Assembly: GCA_016199325.1 (NCBI GenBank)
Contig: JACQGW010000192.1
Coordinates: 1-5,468, forward strand
Length of the DNA stretch: 5,468 nt
Origin: Chloroflexota bacterium
GTDB taxonomy: Bacteria > Chloroflexota > Dehalococcoidia > JACQGW01
Direction: 5' to 3'
The notes below the pieces were generated by a model. The model searched no databases and had not been told where the DNA came from. It saw only the letters and a list, made by a program, of their open reading frames with translations. The translations under genes were made by a program, and so were the position numbers. Below are positions 1 to 5,181 of the stretch, one piece after another; positions within the stretch are counted from its first letter, which is position 1; each line of letters begins with the position of its first letter.

Positions 1-2
1 GC

Positions 3-1556
3 GTAGGTCGGGGGTCGGGGGTCGGGGATTGGGGGACGGGGGACGGGGGGCGGCAGTCGGCAGTCGGCAGTCGGGGGTCAGCTACGGATGATCCTGAAGA
101 TGGCGGGCTCGGCAGTCACACGAAGACAGAGGGGGTCAGCCGTCAGCCGCCAGTTGCACGGGATTCCCAGAGGGGTCATGCGCCACGTGCCATGGGGCAT
201 GTGTCAGTCAACCGTCAGCCGTTGGCCGGTTGCGAGCCCGAGGCTGCCGAGCCCGATGGCCCTGTGCCTGATGCGGGCGCCGACAGACTTGAGCCCCAGC
301 GGACCAGGGACGGGGCCATCGGGCGACACAGCCACCAGATACCGGATCCGGTTGTCCAGAGCGTGCGCCGCACCGCCATCCGGGTCGTCGCCATCGCGCT
401 GGCTGGCAGCGGCGTGCTGCTGCTCGCCACTCCGTTCCTGTCCACCTTCTTGCACCTCTCCTCCCCCGCCCCGCTGGCGGCCCTTGCCCTGCTCGTCGCG
501 CTGAGCAGCGGCCTGGCCGTCTTCCGGGCCGCCATCTGGGGGCTCGGCCGGTTCATCTCGCTCGGCCTCAACCAGGTGGTCGAGGCGTTCCTGCGACTGC
601 TCGCCGGCGTTATCCTCGTCGGCTCGGGGCCTGGCCCGACCGGCGCGCTGGGCGCCTACGCCTTCGGCCAGGCCGCAGCCCTCGCCCTCGCCACCCGCGG
701 CTTCCTCCGGCCGTCCCCGTGTGCTGGAGCGGCTCCGATAGACAACGAACCGCCAGGACGCCAAGAGCGCCAAGGAAGGACGCCAGGAACGTCGGTTGGT
801 CGCCTGGTCAATCCTTTTGCAGACCGCTCCAGGGGCCGGAATACAGCCGATTCGGGCGATTTGGCGATAACCAGAAACCACAAATCATCAGACCAGAATC
901 CTCGTTCTTGGCGAACTTGGCGTCTTGGCGGTTCGACCTCTCCCGGCGGCATCGGCTGGGCCGCCCTCCTCGTGAACGCGGCCTTCCTCGTCATGCTCAG
1001 CGCCGACGTCATCGCCGTCAAACACTTCTTCCCGCCTGAGACGGCCGGCCAGTACGCGGCGCTCTCGACCCTCGGCAAGGCGCTGTTCATGGTCACCAAC
1101 GCCTTCGACACCGCCCTTTTCCCGGCCGCCGCCGCCGCCCACGCCGCTGGCAGTTCTGCCGGCCGCCAGCTCCACCTGGCGCTCGCCGGCATCGCCGCCA
1201 CCGTTGCCCCGAGCCTGGCGATCTACTGGCTGCTTGCCGAGCCGCTCGTCCATCTGCTCTTCGGCGAGCGGTACGCCGCCGCGGCGCCGCTCCTCGGACC
1301 GTACGGGCTCGCCATCGCCGCCCTGGCGCTCGCCGCCACGCTCGCTAAGTATGCGCTCGCCTTCGGCCGGGCGACCCTCTGCGGACCGCTGCTCGTCCTG
1401 GCGGCCGCCGAGCTTGCCGCCCTCGCCGCCTTCCACGAGTCGCTCGAACAGGTCGTCGCGGTGCTGCTCACCGTCGGCGCTGTTGCGCTGGCCGGTAGCA
1501 TCCTGGTCGAGCTCCGAGCGGGACCGGCCTTGACTCTGCCGGCGAGGGGCCGCTGA
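3..1556 (+). CDS. Oligosaccharide (Wzx-type) flippase, 5' end beyond the left edge, with in-frame repeat insertions
   Basis: Inner-membrane flippase of the polysaccharide biosynthesis/MOP type, expected to move undecaprenyl-linked oligosaccharide units to the periplasm. Numbering from the in-frame ATG at 192 (454 residues), I see about ten hydrophobic segments: roughly 62-84, 92-110, 130-146, 150-168, 254-277, 292-312, 328-348, 366-388, 393-413 and 418-439. Family-like stretches are PFLSTFLHL, GLNQVVEAFLRLLAGV, ADVIAVKHFFPPETAGQY and LVHLLFGERYAAAAPLL. The family usually has 12-14 helices, and the first visible helix resembles TM3, so TM1-2 are missing after the ATG at 192. My codon-by-codon reading shows the frame is open leftward to base 3, so I favour a gene that begins outside the window; a start at 192 would give a 5'-truncated protein. 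Residues about 185-248 are hydrophilic and Arg-rich and come from a repeat element. The stop TGA is at 1554-1556, 3 nt before the next gene. Family assignment is firm; the left end is inference. Confidence 0.75.
   Translation, partial: VGRGSGVGDWGTGDGGRQSAVGSRGSATDDPEDGGLGSHTKTEGVSRQPPVARDSQRGHAPRAMGHVSVNRQPLAGCEPEAAEPDGPVPDAGADRLEPQRTRDGAIGRHSHQIPDPVVQSVRRTAIRVVAIALAGSGVLLLATPFLSTFLHLSSPAPLAALALLVALSSGLAVFRAAIWGLGRFISLGLNQVVEAFLRLLAGVILVGSGPGPTGALGAYAFGQAAALALATRGFLRPSPCAGAAPIDNEPPGRQERQGRTPGTSVGRLVNPFADRSRGRNTADSGDLAITRNHKSSDQNPRSWRTWRLGGSTSPGGIGWAALLVNAAFLVMLSADVIAVKHFFPPETAGQYAALSTLGKALFMVTNAFDTALFPAAAAAHAAGSSAGRQLHLALAGIAATVAPSLAIYWLLAEPLVHLLFGERYAAAAPLLGPYGLAIAALALAATLAKYALAFGRATLCGPLLVLAAAELAALAAFHESLEQVVAVLLTVGAVALAGSILVELRAGPALTLPARGR
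7..83. repeat. Heptanucleotide tandem array, 11 units (GTCGGGG/GTCGGCA type)
   Basis: Eleven consecutive 7-nt units can be laid end to end without a gap: GTCGGGG three times, ATTGGGG, GACGGGG twice, GGCGGCA, GTCGGCA twice, GTCGGGG and GTCAGCT. The array starts near the left edge and may extend beyond it. The complement reads CCCCGAC, CCCCAAT and CCCCGTC, recalling the CCCCRRT short tandem repeats described in filamentous cyanobacteria; this is a resemblance in form, not proof of kinship. It lies in the open flippase frame and would encode a Gly-rich stretch. Confidence 0.85.
135..227. repeat. Degenerate heptamer remnants (GTCAGCC type)
   Basis: Units of the same 7-nt length recur after the main array: GTCAGCC, GTCAGCC, GCCAGTT at 135-155 and GTCAACC, GTCAGCC, GTTGGCC at 207-227. 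The segment between them shows no clear periodicity. They look like decayed or separately expanded copies of the upstream array, and suggest that repeat-derived sequence extends to at least base 227, inside the open flippase frame. Confidence 0.5.
741..942. repeat. MITE-like inverted-repeat element (CGCCAAG arms) inserted in the flippase gene
   Basis: The left arm 746-774 and the reverse complement of the right arm 907-935 match at 26 of 29 positions. Each arm is built from 9-nt units of the form CGCCAAGnn. The interior (about 775-906) is poorer in GC than the flanking flippase coding sequence. The right end through CCTCTC (937-942) recurs at 5165-5170 next to a second copy of the arm, which sets an approximate right boundary; the left boundary near 741 is less certain. 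No transposase or clear target-site duplication is seen. The flippase frame is open through the whole element, so it contributes residues about 185-248 of the protein (counted from ATG 192). A non-autonomous mobile or palindromic repeat is the best description. Confidence 0.7.
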
Positions 1557-1559
1557 GCC

Positions 1560-3494
1560 ATGTGCGGAATCGTCGGCATCTGGCATCGCGACGGCGCACC
1601 GGTCGACGGGGCCATCCTGGAGGCGATGTGCCGGGCTATCGCTCATCGCGGCCCCGACGACCAGGGCATCCAGGCCGGGCCGGGCATCGGCCTCGGCAAC
1701 CGGCGGCTGAAGGTCATCGACCTCTCGCCGGCCGGCCACCAGCCGATGGTCAGTGAGAACGGCGCCCTCTGGCTGACTTTCAACGGCGAGATCTACAACT
1801 TCGAGGAGATCCGGAAAGAGCTCCTGGCGCGCGGGCACCGCTTCCACTCCCGCACCGACACCGAGGTGCTGCTTCGCGCCTACGCCGAATACGGCGACGC
1901 CTGTCTGGACCGCCTGAACGGCATGTTCGCCTTCGCGCTCTGGGACGGCCACCGCCGGCGCCTGCTCCTCACGCGCGACCGCCTTGGCATCAAGCCGCTC
2001 TACTACGCCCAGGTCGGCAACGCGCTCGTCTTCGGCTCGGAGATCAAGGGGCTGCTGGCCAGCGGCCTGGTCCCGCGCGACGTCGACCCGGCGGCGATTC
2101 ACCATCTCCTGGGCTCTCTGACCATCCCGGCGCCGCTGACGATCCTGAAGGACGTTCGGGCGCTGCTGCCCGGCCACACCCTCATCGCCGACGAGCGCGG
2201 CGTGCGCACCGCGCCGTACTGGAAACTGCCGTTTGGCGCCACGCCGGAGCCGGCATCCGAGAGAGAATGGACCGAGCGGCTTCGGGCGCTGCTGGAGGAC
2301 GCCGTCCGGCTCCAGCAGGTCGGCGACGTCCCCATCGGCGCCTTCCTCTCCGGCGGCGTCGATTCGACCGGCGTCGTCGGTCTGATGACCCGGCTCACGG
2401 GCCGTCCGGTCAGGACCTTCTGCGTTGGGTGCGAGGAGGACCGCGCGGCACACGACGAGCGGCGCTATGCCCGCCTTGCGGCCGAGCGGTTCGGGGCCGA
2501 GCACGTCGAGCTCGTCGTCGGCGCCGCCGACCTGGCGAGCCATCTCGCCCGCATCGTCTGGTTCATGGACCAGCCGGCCGGGCGCGCCCTCGAAAGCTAT
2601 TTCGTCGCCCAGGCGGCCTGCAGCCGGGTGACCGTCGCCCTCTCCGGCCTCGGCGGCGACGAGCTCTTCGCCGGCTATCGGCTCGAATCGATTCTCGGTT
2701 GGGCCGACCGGCTGGCTCCGCTCTACCGGCTCCCCCAGATCCCGTCCCTCGTCCGATCGCTCGCCGCCCGGTGGCCGACCGCTCCCACGCGCTGGCGGCT
2801 CACCCTGGTGGACCGCCTCCTGAGCGCGTCGAGCTTTCCTGAGCGCTACGCCGCTCTGCACTTTCCGTTCGCCGAGGCCGAGCGGCGCTCGCTCTACACC
2901 CCGGCGTTCGGCGCCGCGGTCGGCGAAGCGTCCAGCCTCGACCTCGTCGGCCGGCTCACCGCCGAGACCGGCGGCTGGGATGGCGCCAACCGGCTGGGAT
3001 ACCTGAACGCGCAGCTCTACCTCGCCAATGACCTGCTCCTTCACACCGACACGATGAGCATGGCGCATTCTCTGGAGGTCCGGGTGCCGCTGCTGGACCA
3101 TCGACTCGTCGAGTTGGCCGCGCGGGTGCCGCACGACCTCAAGGTGCGCCGAGGAATGACCAAGTACCTCTTGCGGCGGGCGCTCGCCGACCTGCTGCCG
3201 CCGGAGACCGTCTCCCGGCCCAAGACCGGCTTCTCGCTGCCGATGGCCCGATACCTCCGGCACCAACTGCGGCCGCTCGTCGAATCCACCCTGGCCGACG
3301 CCGTCGTCGCTCGCCGTGGCTATTTCCGGCCGGCGGCAGTGCGCGCCATCCGGGACCACTTCTTCCAGCAGCGCGACGTCGTCTGGGCCGAGCACCTCCA
3401 GCTCTGGCTGCTCGTCGTGCTCGAGCTCTGGCACCGGCTCTACGTCGACCGGACGGCGCCGACACCGCCCGGCATCGGGGAGCAGATCTGGTGA
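1560..3494 (+). CDS. asnB: Class II glutamine-dependent amidotransferase, asparagine synthetase (AsnB) family
   Basis: Cytosolic two-domain enzyme of 644 residues. The N-terminal Ntn glutaminase domain (about 1-190) has the nucleophile Cys2 in MCGIVGIW, then RGPDDQG at 30-36, NGEIYNF at 75-81, SRTDTE at 97-102 and TRDRLGIKPLYY at 138-149. The C-terminal ATP-binding synthetase domain has the PP-loop SGGVDS at 264-269, SGLGGDELFAGY at 362-373, EVRVPLLDHRLVEL at 506-519 and RGMTKYLLR at 531-539. The family chemistry releases ammonia from glutamine, channels it and amidates an adenylated carboxylate, classically aspartate. Position 364 is Leu where E. coli AsnB has Glu348, so the acceptor may not be aspartate. 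The ATG at 1560 follows GAGGGG (1544-1549) by 10 nt and lies 3 nt after the flippase stop; the stop overlaps the next start. In a polysaccharide operon, amidation of a uronic acid or a related acceptor is plausible but inferred. Family is certain; substrate is not. Confidence 0.95.
   Translation: MCGIVGIWHRDGAPVDGAILEAMCRAIAHRGPDDQGIQAGPGIGLGNRRLKVIDLSPAGHQPMVSENGALWLTFNGEIYNFEEIRKELLARGHRFHSRTDTEVLLRAYAEYGDACLDRLNGMFAFALWDGHRRRLLLTRDRLGIKPLYYAQVGNALVFGSEIKGLLASGLVPRDVDPAAIHHLLGSLTIPAPLTILKDVRALLPGHTLIADERGVRTAPYWKLPFGATPEPASEREWTERLRALLEDAVRLQQVGDVPIGAFLSGGVDSTGVVGLMTRLTGRPVRTFCVGCEEDRAAHDERRYARLAAERFGAEHVELVVGAADLASHLARIVWFMDQPAGRALESYFVAQAACSRVTVALSGLGGDELFAGYRLESILGWADRLAPLYRLPQIPSLVRSLAARWPTAPTRWRLTLVDRLLSASSFPERYAALHFPFAEAERRSLYTPAFGAAVGEASSLDLVGRLTAETGGWDGANRLGYLNAQLYLANDLLLHTDTMSMAHSLEVRVPLLDHRLVELAARVPHDLKVRRGMTKYLLRRALADLLPPETVSRPKTGFSLPMARYLRHQLRPLVESTLADAVVARRGYFRPAAVRAIRDHFFQQRDVVWAEHLQLWLLVVLELWHRLYVDRTAPTPPGIGEQIW
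3477..3482 (+). promoter_or_regulatory. Ribosome binding site supporting the GTG start at 3491
   Basis: GGGGAG lies 8 nt upstream of the GTG at 3491, within the last codons of the asnB-family gene. This spacing and the GTGA stop/start overlap pick this GTG over internal start codons and suggest translational coupling. Confidence 0.6.
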
Positions 3495-4657
3495 AGCTCA
3501 GAAGAATCGTCGCCCTGTGCTCCTCGCTCGACCTGGCCGGCCCCTACGCCTGCACGCCGTCCTGGTGGCAACTGCTCAAGGCACTGGCCGAGACCGGCGT
3601 CGAGGTCATCGCCACCCCCTACCACAGCGCCGCGACCGACACGCTCTGGTGGCGGGCCGAGCCCAACCCCTGCCGGTGGGAGAGCGACCTCTTCAGCCGG
3701 TTCCGCTCATTGTGGCCGCGACAAACCGGCCAGCGGGGAGAGCCCTTGGGCGAGCGCCTTCAGCATTTCCTCGTCGCCGAGCTGATCCGGCCGCGCTGGC
3801 AGCGCCACCTCGCCGCCATCCTGGATCGCCACCGCCCCGTCGACGCTCTGGTCGTCCTGACCGTGCCGATGAACCACCTCACCGGCGTGCCCACGGCGCT
3901 CCGGCGGCACCTTGCCGGACCCATTGTCTTTTACGACGGCGACGCGCCCGCCAGCCTGCCCGCCTTCGGGGGGTTCTCGACGGGCTTTCGGAGCTACCGG
4001 CGGGCCGACCTCGCCGAGTACGACGCCGTCCTCTCGAACTCGCTCGGCGCCGCCGTCGAGCTGCGCCGGATGGGAGCGCGTCGCGTCGAAGTGCTCCACT
4101 ACGCCGCCGACCCCGACGTCTTCCGCCCGGTCGGGACCGAGCAGGACGTCGACGTCCTCTTCTACGGCACCGGCCACCAGTTTCGCCGGGAGTGGATCGA
4201 GCAGATGTTGATCGGCCCGAGCCAGGAGATGGACGGCCGATTCGCCATCCGGGGCGGCGGCTTCGACGACCTCCCGCTCGGCCGCGTCGAACGGCTGCCG
4301 CAGACGTCCTTCGGCGAGCTCCCCAGGCTGGTCGCCCGCGCCCGCATCAACCTGCTGATCACCCGCGGCGCCCACGCCAGCGTGTACGGCTCGTCGACCG
4401 CTCGTCCGTTCGAGCTGGCCGCGCTCGGCTGCGCCATCGTCTCGAACCCCACGGCCGGCATCGAAGAATGGTTCGAGCCGGACCGGGATCTGATCGTCGT
4501 CCACAACCAGGCCGAAGCCGTCGCCGCCTACCGCACGCTCCTGGCCGACCCGGCCGCCCGCGCTGCCCTCGGCCGCCAAGCCCGCGCCCGGCTCCTGCAA
4601 GAACACACCTACCGCCACCGCGCCGAGCAACTGATCAAGATCCTCGAAGCGATCTGA
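3491..4657 (+). CDS. CgeB-like family glycosyltransferase (GT-B fold)
   Basis: Protein of 388 residues without a signal peptide or membrane helix, so probably cytosolic or peripheral at the membrane. The N-terminal half ends in FYDGD (147-151), SNS (182-184) and LHYAADPDVFRP (202-213), a pattern typical of CgeB/DUF3880-type transferases. The C-terminal half carries DVLFYGTGHQFRREWI (221-236) and STARPFELAALGCAIVSNP (302-320), the nucleotide-sugar-binding signature of the glycosyl transferases group 1 type, with Glu308 as the likely conserved acid. It would transfer a sugar from a nucleotide donor to a lipid-linked oligosaccharide or another acceptor; donor and acceptor cannot be read from sequence. 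The start is GTG at 3491, overlapping the preceding stop by 4 nt, with a good ribosome binding site. It is the last plus-strand gene of the operon visible here and converges with the antitoxin gene. Superfamily assignment is good; CgeB subfamily is probable. Confidence 0.85.
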   Translation: MKLRRIVALCSSLDLAGPYACTPSWWQLLKALAETGVEVIATPYHSAATDTLWWRAEPNPCRWESDLFSRFRSLWPRQTGQRGEPLGERLQHFLVAELIRPRWQRHLAAILDRHRPVDALVVLTVPMNHLTGVPTALRRHLAGPIVFYDGDAPASLPAFGGFSTGFRSYRRADLAEYDAVLSNSLGAAVELRRMGARRVEVLHYAADPDVFRPVGTEQDVDVLFYGTGHQFRREWIEQMLIGPSQEMDGRFAIRGGGFDDLPLGRVERLPQTSFGELPRLVARARINLLITRGAHASVYGSSTARPFELAALGCAIVSNPTAGIEEWFEPDRDLIVVHNQAEAVAAYRTLLADPAARAALGRQARARLLQEHTYRHRAEQLIKILEAI

Positions 4658-4682: not shown

Positions 4683-4691
4683 CCGTTCGGA

Positions 4692-4800
4692 TCACGAAAG
4701 GCGCGAAACACCGCGAAAAGGCACGAACTGAGTGGTTGCCCTCAACCTGACGGACGCTCCCGCTTTCGCGGCTTTCGCGTCGTTTCGCGCCCTTTCGCGG
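4692..4800. repeat. Inverted-repeat element with CGCGAAA-type arms between convergent genes
   Basis: The left arm (about 4692-4728) and the reverse complement of the right arm (about 4763-4800) align over roughly 37 nt with single-base offsets and a few mismatches, separated by about 34 nt. Each arm is made of near-9-nt units: CACGAAAGG, CGCGAAACA, CGCGAAAAG and a final CACGAAC on the left. The RNA of either strand could fold into a long hairpin, so it could end transcription from both sides. The right arm also encodes the last residues of the minus-strand antitoxin. No transposase is present; a non-autonomous palindromic repeat family is the likely class. Confidence 0.75.
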
Positions 4801-5083
4801 TCCAGGACTCATCCAGGCCGACCCTGGCCCGGAGATCTTTCAGCGTCAGCACCTCACCCTCGCCCCGATCTGCCTGTTCCACCGACTCCATAAGGCGGAC
4901 CAGGTTTCTGGGTGAACGCATAAGGTGCAAGGTTTCTCGCAGGCTTTCCAGCTCGTCCAGTACGAGCATGGCGACGGGACGCTTTCCCCGTCGAGAAATC
5001 ACTATGGTCTCCCTGTCGTCGGTGGCCCTGTCGATCAGCTCGGCCAGATGGGCTCGCGCCTCCGTGTAGCTTACCCGCACCAT
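4742..5083 (-). CDS. Phd/YefM-family antitoxin, apparently without a toxin partner
   Basis: Protein of 113 residues. The N-terminal part VSYTEARAHLAELIDRATDD (4-23) followed by ETIVISRRGKRPVAMLVLDELESL (25-48) is the DNA-binding and dimerisation fold of Phd/YefM antitoxins. The family neutralises a RelE/YoeB-type or Doc toxin through its C-terminal region and represses its own promoter. I start at ATG 5083 because GGGGAGG lies 8 nt upstream and the family's N-terminus begins there; the longer open frame upstream runs through a repeat. A TATAGA hexamer at 5119-5114 on the minus strand is a possible -10 with no convincing -35. The usual family C-terminus seems to end near GLDE (89-92); the remaining tail (93-113) is Lys/Arg-rich and is encoded largely by the CGCGAAA repeat arm. 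Only 84 nt separate its stop from the convergent glycosyltransferase, so no toxin follows. Family assignment is good; function as a lone regulator or a relic is inference. Confidence 0.85.
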   Translation of the reverse strand: MVRVSYTEARAHLAELIDRATDDRETIVISRRGKRPVAMLVLDELESLRETLHLMRSPRNLVRLMESVEQADRGEGEVLTLKDLRARVGLDESWTAKGRETTRKPRKRERPSG

Positions 5084-5098: not shown

Positions 5099-5132
5099 GA
5101 AAACATCGTCATTTCTATACAACCCGGCGTCA

Positions 5133-5170
5133 TTCTTGGCGACCTTGGCGTCTTGGCGGTTCGGCCTCTC
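5133..5170. repeat. Solo arm of the CGCCAAG-type element
   Basis: Bases 5133-5163 match 905-935 (the right arm of the element in the flippase gene) with one mismatch, and CCTCTC follows one base later in both. I see no matching left arm nearby. It lies in the 112-nt gap between the two minus-strand genes, upstream of the antitoxin. It could be a solo or truncated copy of the same repeat family. Confidence 0.75.
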
Positions 5171-5181
5171 TCGAAACCGCC
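5155..5181 (-). terminator. Hairpin downstream of the 5196-5468 gene
   Basis: GGCGGTTCG (5155-5163) pairs with CGAAACCGCC (5172-5181) through an 8-nt loop and one bulged base. It begins 14 nt after the stop of the upstream minus-strand gene. No T-tract follows, and one side of the stem belongs to the repeat arm, so terminator function is only possible. Confidence 0.35.

What the first reader, a model, noticed from the sequence alone, without database searches (positions are those of the whole stretch)
741..942. Inverted-repeat element embedded in frame in a flippase gene
The sequence shows two arms with 26 of 29 matching positions flanking a GC-poorer interior, all inside a membrane-protein gene whose frame stays open on both sides and through the element. 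It adds about 64 hydrophilic, Arg-rich residues between the helices I read as TM6 and TM7, i.e. the central cytoplasmic loop where an insertion is most likely to be tolerated. This is reminiscent of the in-gene palindromic elements of Rickettsia, but with unrelated sequence. It could be a repeat family that creates protein segments.
Basis: partly seen in the sequence, partly recalled or inferred. Interest (0 to 1): 0.7.

Follow-up and report, generated by a model that had tools for sequence, protein, structure and literature searches.

The report
Palindromic mobile repeat inside flippase gene
A small hairpin-forming repeat, probably a gene-less relative of mobile elements that carry a little DNA-cutting enzyme, has landed inside a membrane-transporter gene without shifting its reading frame; the insertion itself looks accidental, but the link between such repeats and that enzyme did not turn up in my literature searches.

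Summary
The inverted repeat is real: arms 746-774/907-935 match at 26 of 29, beyond 2000 shuffles. Three flippase homologues lack the segment, so it is an insertion. "Creating protein segments" is not supported: the insert has non-coding composition (GC3 0.52 against 0.90 on both sides), an open frame has a 27% chance, one protein search found no other carrier, and the gene also lacks its N-terminal 65-100 residues. The arms, regularly spaced 7-base units, belong to a dispersed family. In one Chloroflexota genus a gene-less element with the same CGCCAAG arms has 7-10 bp direct repeats at its ends in 15 of 17 copies, so it transposes. Arms of this form flank GxxExxY nuclease genes (PF13366) in 70 of 81 loci. 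At one site arms plus gene are present in 5 of 21 related genomes and absent in 14. I read the window copy as a MITE-like, gene-less member. The GxxExxY-arm unit, and a parallel 7-bp-periodic unit around 23S IVP genes, appeared in none of my literature searches and are the more interesting result.

The parts
738..943 (.). inserted palindromic element (outer limits approximate, by eye)
   Evidence: arms; outer GAGAGG(T/C)CGAACC shared by the right arm and the third arm; gap in homologues
746..774 (+). left arm, three 7-base units CGCCA[AG]G spaced 8 and 9 bases apart
   Evidence: 26 of 29 matches to 907-935; spacing read from the letters of that call
907..935 (-). right arm (inverted copy)
   Evidence: 31 of 32 bases equal to copies of the mobile element of G468
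775..906 (.). interior, no Pfam match and no relative among the 363 loci held
330..734 (+). flippase, part before the insert (GC3 0.896)
948..1556 (+). flippase, part after the insert (PF13440; GC3 0.896)
3..329 (+). open but non-coding-like stretch where homologues have their first 65-100 residues
   Evidence: GC3 0.679; alignment
1..85 (.). 7-bp-periodic repeat (0.76 identity at lag 7), of the kind that flanks IVP genes elsewhere; cut by the contig end
   Evidence: comparison
4684..4805 (.). second palindromic element of similar form, unit CGCGAAA, between genes
   Evidence: inverted repeats I6 and I19; scan
5130..5173 (-). third, single arm of the CGCCAAG type, 91% identical to 902-945
   Evidence: D4

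Best explanation
Window ~738-943 is a gene-less, MITE-like copy of a dispersed family of palindromic-arm elements. It inserted into the central cytoplasmic loop of a polysaccharide flippase gene and kept the frame by chance. The arms are regularly spaced 7-base units (8 and 9 bases apart here) that look like protein-binding sites. The fuller form of the family carries, between arms of this form, a GxxExxY gene: a small Cas4/RecB-like PD-(D/E)XK nuclease with conserved active site. Shown: the arms, the insertion relative to homologues, dispersal of the same arms in other genomes, direct repeats at the ends of gene-less CGCCAAG elements in one genus, the arm-GxxExxY association, and presence/absence of arms plus gene as one unit at one site. 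Inferred: that the window copy moved in the same way, that GxxExxY binds or cuts the arms, and that gene-less copies are mobilised in trans. The flippase is probably a recent pseudogene (inferred).
Against: The window element carries no gene and no clear target duplication (best direct repeat 5 bp). It lacks the outer CTACCGTACA ends of the copies in G033/G468 that have direct repeats, so those copies may be moved by an unseen transposase acting on those ends, not on the arms. No genome is held for the window and no relative with an empty flippase site was found. GxxExxY elements show no convincing duplications (7 of 65 with 7 bp or more against 3.2% in controls, some of the seven in arm-like repeats). 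11 of 81 GxxExxY loci have no significant arms. Co-variation is expected from linkage alone and was not corrected for relatedness of genomes. Arm periodicity around GxxExxY is weak (0.34-0.36 at lag 9 against 0.25-0.30 at most other lags).
Confidence: 0.68

Rival explanations
1. An in-frame palindromic insert that is retained as part of a working protein, as proposed for Rickettsia palindromic elements.
For: Open frame through the insert, hydrophilic loop position, strong codon bias in both preserved gene parts. 5 single arms in four of 12 viral stretches (L322, L327, L331, L333) lie in frames open for 500 nt or more on both sides.
Against: GC3 of the insert 0.521; chance of an open frame 27%; no protein relative in one search; in 58 bacterial arm loci the longest frame spanning the arm never extends 300 nt on both sides; the gene lacks its first 65-100 residues.
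Confidence: 0.1
2. A classical MITE of an ordinary DDE-type insertion sequence; the arms are incidental sub-terminal sequence and GxxExxY is unrelated cargo or a gene that happens to lie in repeats. (Overlaps with the best explanation as to the window copy.)
For: 7-10 bp direct repeats, mostly 8-9, and outer CTACCGTACA ends in G033/G468 fit such a transposase.
Against: By eye, arms without those outer ends occur in the window, in G001, G333, in viral contigs L323 and L329 and around GxxExxY genes. Arms track the GxxExxY protein.
Confidence: 0.22
3. REP/REPIN-type repeat spread by a RAYT (Y1) transposase.
For: Single and paired inverted copies, many per genome, as in REPs.
Against: Y1_Tnp genes of six genomes: 3 of 22 evaluable loci (of 30) have inverted flanks above 27, by eye none of the arm form seen here. 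That RAYTs leave no such duplications is recalled.
Confidence: 0.05
4. A metagenome assembly chimera joining unrelated repeat-bearing pieces.
For: The contig is a single 5.5-kb piece, starts inside a simple repeat and holds three related arms.
Against: The same frame, one gene family and equal GC3 on both sides of the insert.
Confidence: 0.05

Closest known systems
Rickettsia palindromic elements (RPE)
   Same: Palindromic element of about 150 bp in frame inside a gene (passages of review PMC10969869).
   Different: RPEs encode a conserved peptide and lie in genes very often (same passages). No conserved peptide here; location in genes is mixed.
Prokaryotic MITEs, including intragenic RU elements of enterobacteria
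   Same: Short, gene-less, MITE-like, dispersed, sometimes in frame in genes (abstract of PMC2759123).
   Different: Arms are rows of regularly spaced 7-base units, shared across genera, and also occur around a nuclease gene.
REP / REPIN repeats with RAYT transposase
   Same: Single and inverted paired copies at many sites per genome.
   Different: No Y1_Tnp gene with arms of this form in six genomes; direct repeats at the ends of a relative.
23S rRNA intervening sequences with S23p/IVP gene
   Same: Inverted-repeat ends enclosing one small gene of unknown function (passages of PMC4990558). IVP genes of the phylum of G014 have analogous 7-bp-periodic arms.
   Different: Other gene family, other period, not in rRNA.

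Membership tests
MITE | inverted terminal sequences | tested here: met
   26 of 29
MITE | no transposase gene of its own, under about 600 bp | tested here: met
   about 206 bp, no Pfam match in 735-947
MITE | target-site duplication | tested here: inconclusive
   window best direct repeat 5 bp; 15 of 17 copies of a relative with the same arms have 7 bp or more
MITE | several copies in the host genome | tested here: inconclusive
   one more CGCCAAG arm in the window; no genome held
MITE | matching autonomous partner | tested here: inconclusive
   GxxExxY elements share the arm form, but movement by GxxExxY is not shown
Rickettsia palindromic element | conserved peptide encoded by the element | tested here: not met
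   one protein search of the insert found only the window's protein
Rickettsia palindromic element | frequent location in frame inside genes | tested here: inconclusive
   58 bacterial loci against, 5 places in four viral stretches possibly for
Rickettsia palindromic element | sequence similarity to an RPE family | not tested
   no RPE sequence was fetched
REP/REPIN | RAYT gene flanked by the repeats | tested here: not met
   by eye 0 of 22 evaluable Y1_Tnp loci with arms of this form in six genomes
23S rRNA IVS | lies in 23S rRNA | tested here: not met
   lies in a protein gene; no Rfam match in the window

The most novel reading that the evidence does not exclude
GxxExxY (PDDEXK_3) proteins are the nucleases of a minimal class of mobile element, about 550 bp. 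A single Cas4/RecB-like PD-(D/E)XK enzyme recognises inverted arms of regularly spaced 7-base units whose sequence co-evolves with it, and gene-less arm pairs such as the window's are its MITEs. A parallel class pairs the 23S 'IVP' protein with 7-bp-periodic arms.
Probability: 0.35. Interest if true: 0.85.

Novelty: new variant of a known kind. Interest (0 to 1): 0.58.

Why it matters
In-frame intragenic repeats are often presented as sources of new protein; this case shows how easily GC-rich DNA gives that appearance. The larger point is that PF13366/GxxExxY, a nuclease family without assigned function (recalled) found in 32 of 40 sampled genomes of the phylum of G014, sits between its own paired arms in most loci examined. 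That gives the family a testable job, recognition and mobilisation of the arms, and gives these repeats, whose letters I found in no held paper, a candidate agent.

Tried and rejected
Plasmid DNA search: no match. Rfam: no match at gathering threshold. Pfam on the insert: none. PF13366 in the phylum of G012: 0 of 60 genomes, so no test there. The window interior has no relative among the 363 loci held. Target duplications of GxxExxY elements: inconclusive. PDB sequence search with the GxxExxY profile: best E 0.7. PADLOC: one weak Cas4 match in one of four. Helical phasing of the arms, which I first assumed, is not borne out: units are 8-9 bases apart in the window and the best lag is mostly 8-10 elsewhere. 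For this and for the viral arms in open frames I lowered the best explanation slightly and raised the first rival. Literature: 10 answered searches. 'GxxExxY' occurs in two held papers; I read one passage of PMC8934634 and only the listing of PMC12085832; what I saw does not link it to repeats. Of PMC2759123 I saw the abstract and outline, of PMC4990558 and PMC10969869 passages. Subscription papers and preprints are mostly not held, so novelty in print is not proven. The first flank test (44 of 51) was repeated with better gene placement because four proteins came out wrong.

Full report
What is in the window. The window is a whole 5468-base contig (one search gives the longest contig of its protein as 5468) with no genome held. 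It carries part of a polysaccharide flippase (PF13440 on 948-1553), an asparagine synthase-like gene 1560-3494, a glycosyltransferase 3491-4657 and a Phd/YefM antitoxin-like frame on the minus strand. Of 15 glycosyltransferase relatives at 44-51% identity, 12 carry Chloroflexi/Anaerolineae or actinobacterial titles.

The repeat is real. The best 29-base arms are 746-774 and 907-935, 26 of 29. The inverted-repeat score is 43 against at most 28 in 2000 dinucleotide shuffles, and the RNA folds at z -5.7. Alignment to P0002, P0003 and P0004 puts the segment in a gap. Identities there are only 28-30%; a second search with the insert left out added one more distant protein, so the exact insertion point is not defined.

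It does not look like a protein-making element. GC at third positions is 0.896 in both preserved flippase parts, 0.90-0.91 in the next two genes, 0.521 in the insert and 0.679 in 3-329. A shuffled insert is open in a given frame 27% of the time, and three of the six real frames are open. A search of the insert region returned only the window's protein. The three homologues start about 65-100 residues earlier than the recognisable flippase here. The missing part coincides with a stretch that begins with a 7-bp-periodic repeat. The simplest reading is a recently broken gene hit by two repeats. I cannot exclude that the N-terminal part continues beyond the contig end.

The arms are a family. Each window arm has three 7-base units spaced 8 and 9 bases apart. 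The 19-base arm with up to one mismatch was found in 1 of the 15 genomes behind the glycosyltransferase loci (40 places in G001) and in 6 of 400 genomes drawn from the phylum of G002 (20 places in G255, 16 in G033, 1-3 in the other four; the reversed control hit once, in another genome). G001 is titled Bacteroidetes, but its phylum draw is the same as that of G033, so I treat it as Chloroflexota. Of these 84 places 58 were read. In G001 27 of 30 lack a downstream partner scoring 27 or more within 1.2 kb; in G333, G030, G017 and several G033 loci there is an inverted partner about 15-25 bases away. In none of the 58 does the longest frame spanning the arm extend 300 nt on both sides. Twelve stretches of viral contigs hold the exact arm; L323 and L329 have inverted pairs with 88-96 bases between, much like the window's, while 5 single arms in L322, L327, L331 and L333 lie in frames open for 500 nt or more on both sides. 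The latter speak for occasional in-gene copies, or for chance in GC-rich DNA; I did not resolve them.

Gene-less copies move. In the genus of G033 an element of about 110 bases contains the CGCCAAG arms; its arm is 31 of 32 identical to the window's right arm. It occurs repeatedly in G033 and G468. Of 20 fetched copies 17 had both ends. 15 of these 17 have direct repeats of 7-10 bases at near-constant offsets, against 0 of 2000 mismatched pairs. These copies also have outer CTACCGTACA ends that the window lacks.

GxxExxY genes sit between such arms. PF13366 searches gave loci whose proteins NCBIfam names GxxExxY in 4 of 4 tested. Of 94 loci held, 88 genes could be placed, 2 were duplicates and 5 had too little flank. 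Of the 81 left, 70 have inverted flanks above the highest of 50 far-flank controls; 5.7% of mismatched pairs do. Other genes: antitoxin 0 of 7, the six weakest IVP hits 1 of 6, Y1_Tnp 3 of 22. The arms are rows of units such as CACAGAG, CGCCAAG, CACGAAG, CGCGGAT or ACAGGAT, alike on both sides of one gene and different between genes. The best lag is 9 or 10 in 26 of 44 and 14 of 16 loci. Unit type follows protein similarity (Mantel r 0.259, n 69, 0 of 2000 permutations; nearest-neighbour percentile 0.71). This shows that arms and gene travel together; it does not by itself show recognition, and relatedness of genomes was not corrected for.

The unit comes and goes. At the site of L078, 31 genus genomes were searched and 21 with both flanks were read. 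5 have arms plus the GxxExxY region (545-686 bp), 14 have 19-91 bp, 2 have other DNA. Divergence prevents reading target duplications there.

A parallel family. IVP genes (PF05635) in the phylum of G014 are flanked by inverted arms in 13 of 16 evaluable strong loci (30 held; 6 weakest set aside, two of them just over the cut-off; 8 without full flanks). Their period is 7 bp (0.546 identity at lag 7 and 0.483 at lag 14 against 0.23-0.35 at the other lags from 5 to 13). Window 1-85 has that period (0.76). Heptanucleotide STRR repeats of cyanobacteria are a recalled parallel.

Verdict. The proposed role is not supported. The window copy is best read as a gene-less, MITE-like palindromic element in a decaying flippase gene. 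The association with GxxExxY is the part worth following.

Noticed in passing
window 1-85: 7-bp-periodic repeat like the arms that flank IVP (PF05635) genes elsewhere; the contig ends in it and the flippase N-terminus is missing next to it.
   Followed up: partly
L157-L180: IVP genes lie between inverted arms with a 7-bp period in 13 of 16 evaluable loci.
   Followed up: partly
window 4684-4805: Second palindrome of similar form with unit CGCGAAA between the glycosyltransferase and the antitoxin frame.
   Followed up: partly
window 5130-5173: Third CGCCAAG arm, 91% identical to 902-945, without an evident partner.
   Followed up: no
window 242-333: Another imperfect inverted repeat (34-base arms, 76%) in the non-coding-like 5' stretch.
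   Followed up: no
L078:795-883: A different 89-base dispersed palindrome (ends TGTCATTGCGAG...CTCGCAATGACA) with copies in several genus members.
   Followed up: no
L322, L327, L331, L333: Viral contigs with 5 single exact arms inside frames open for 500 bases or more on both sides; insertion or chance not resolved.
   Followed up: no
L001 / G001: MAG titled Bacteroidetes that the genome tool places in the same phylum as Anaerolineae genomes.
   Followed up: partly
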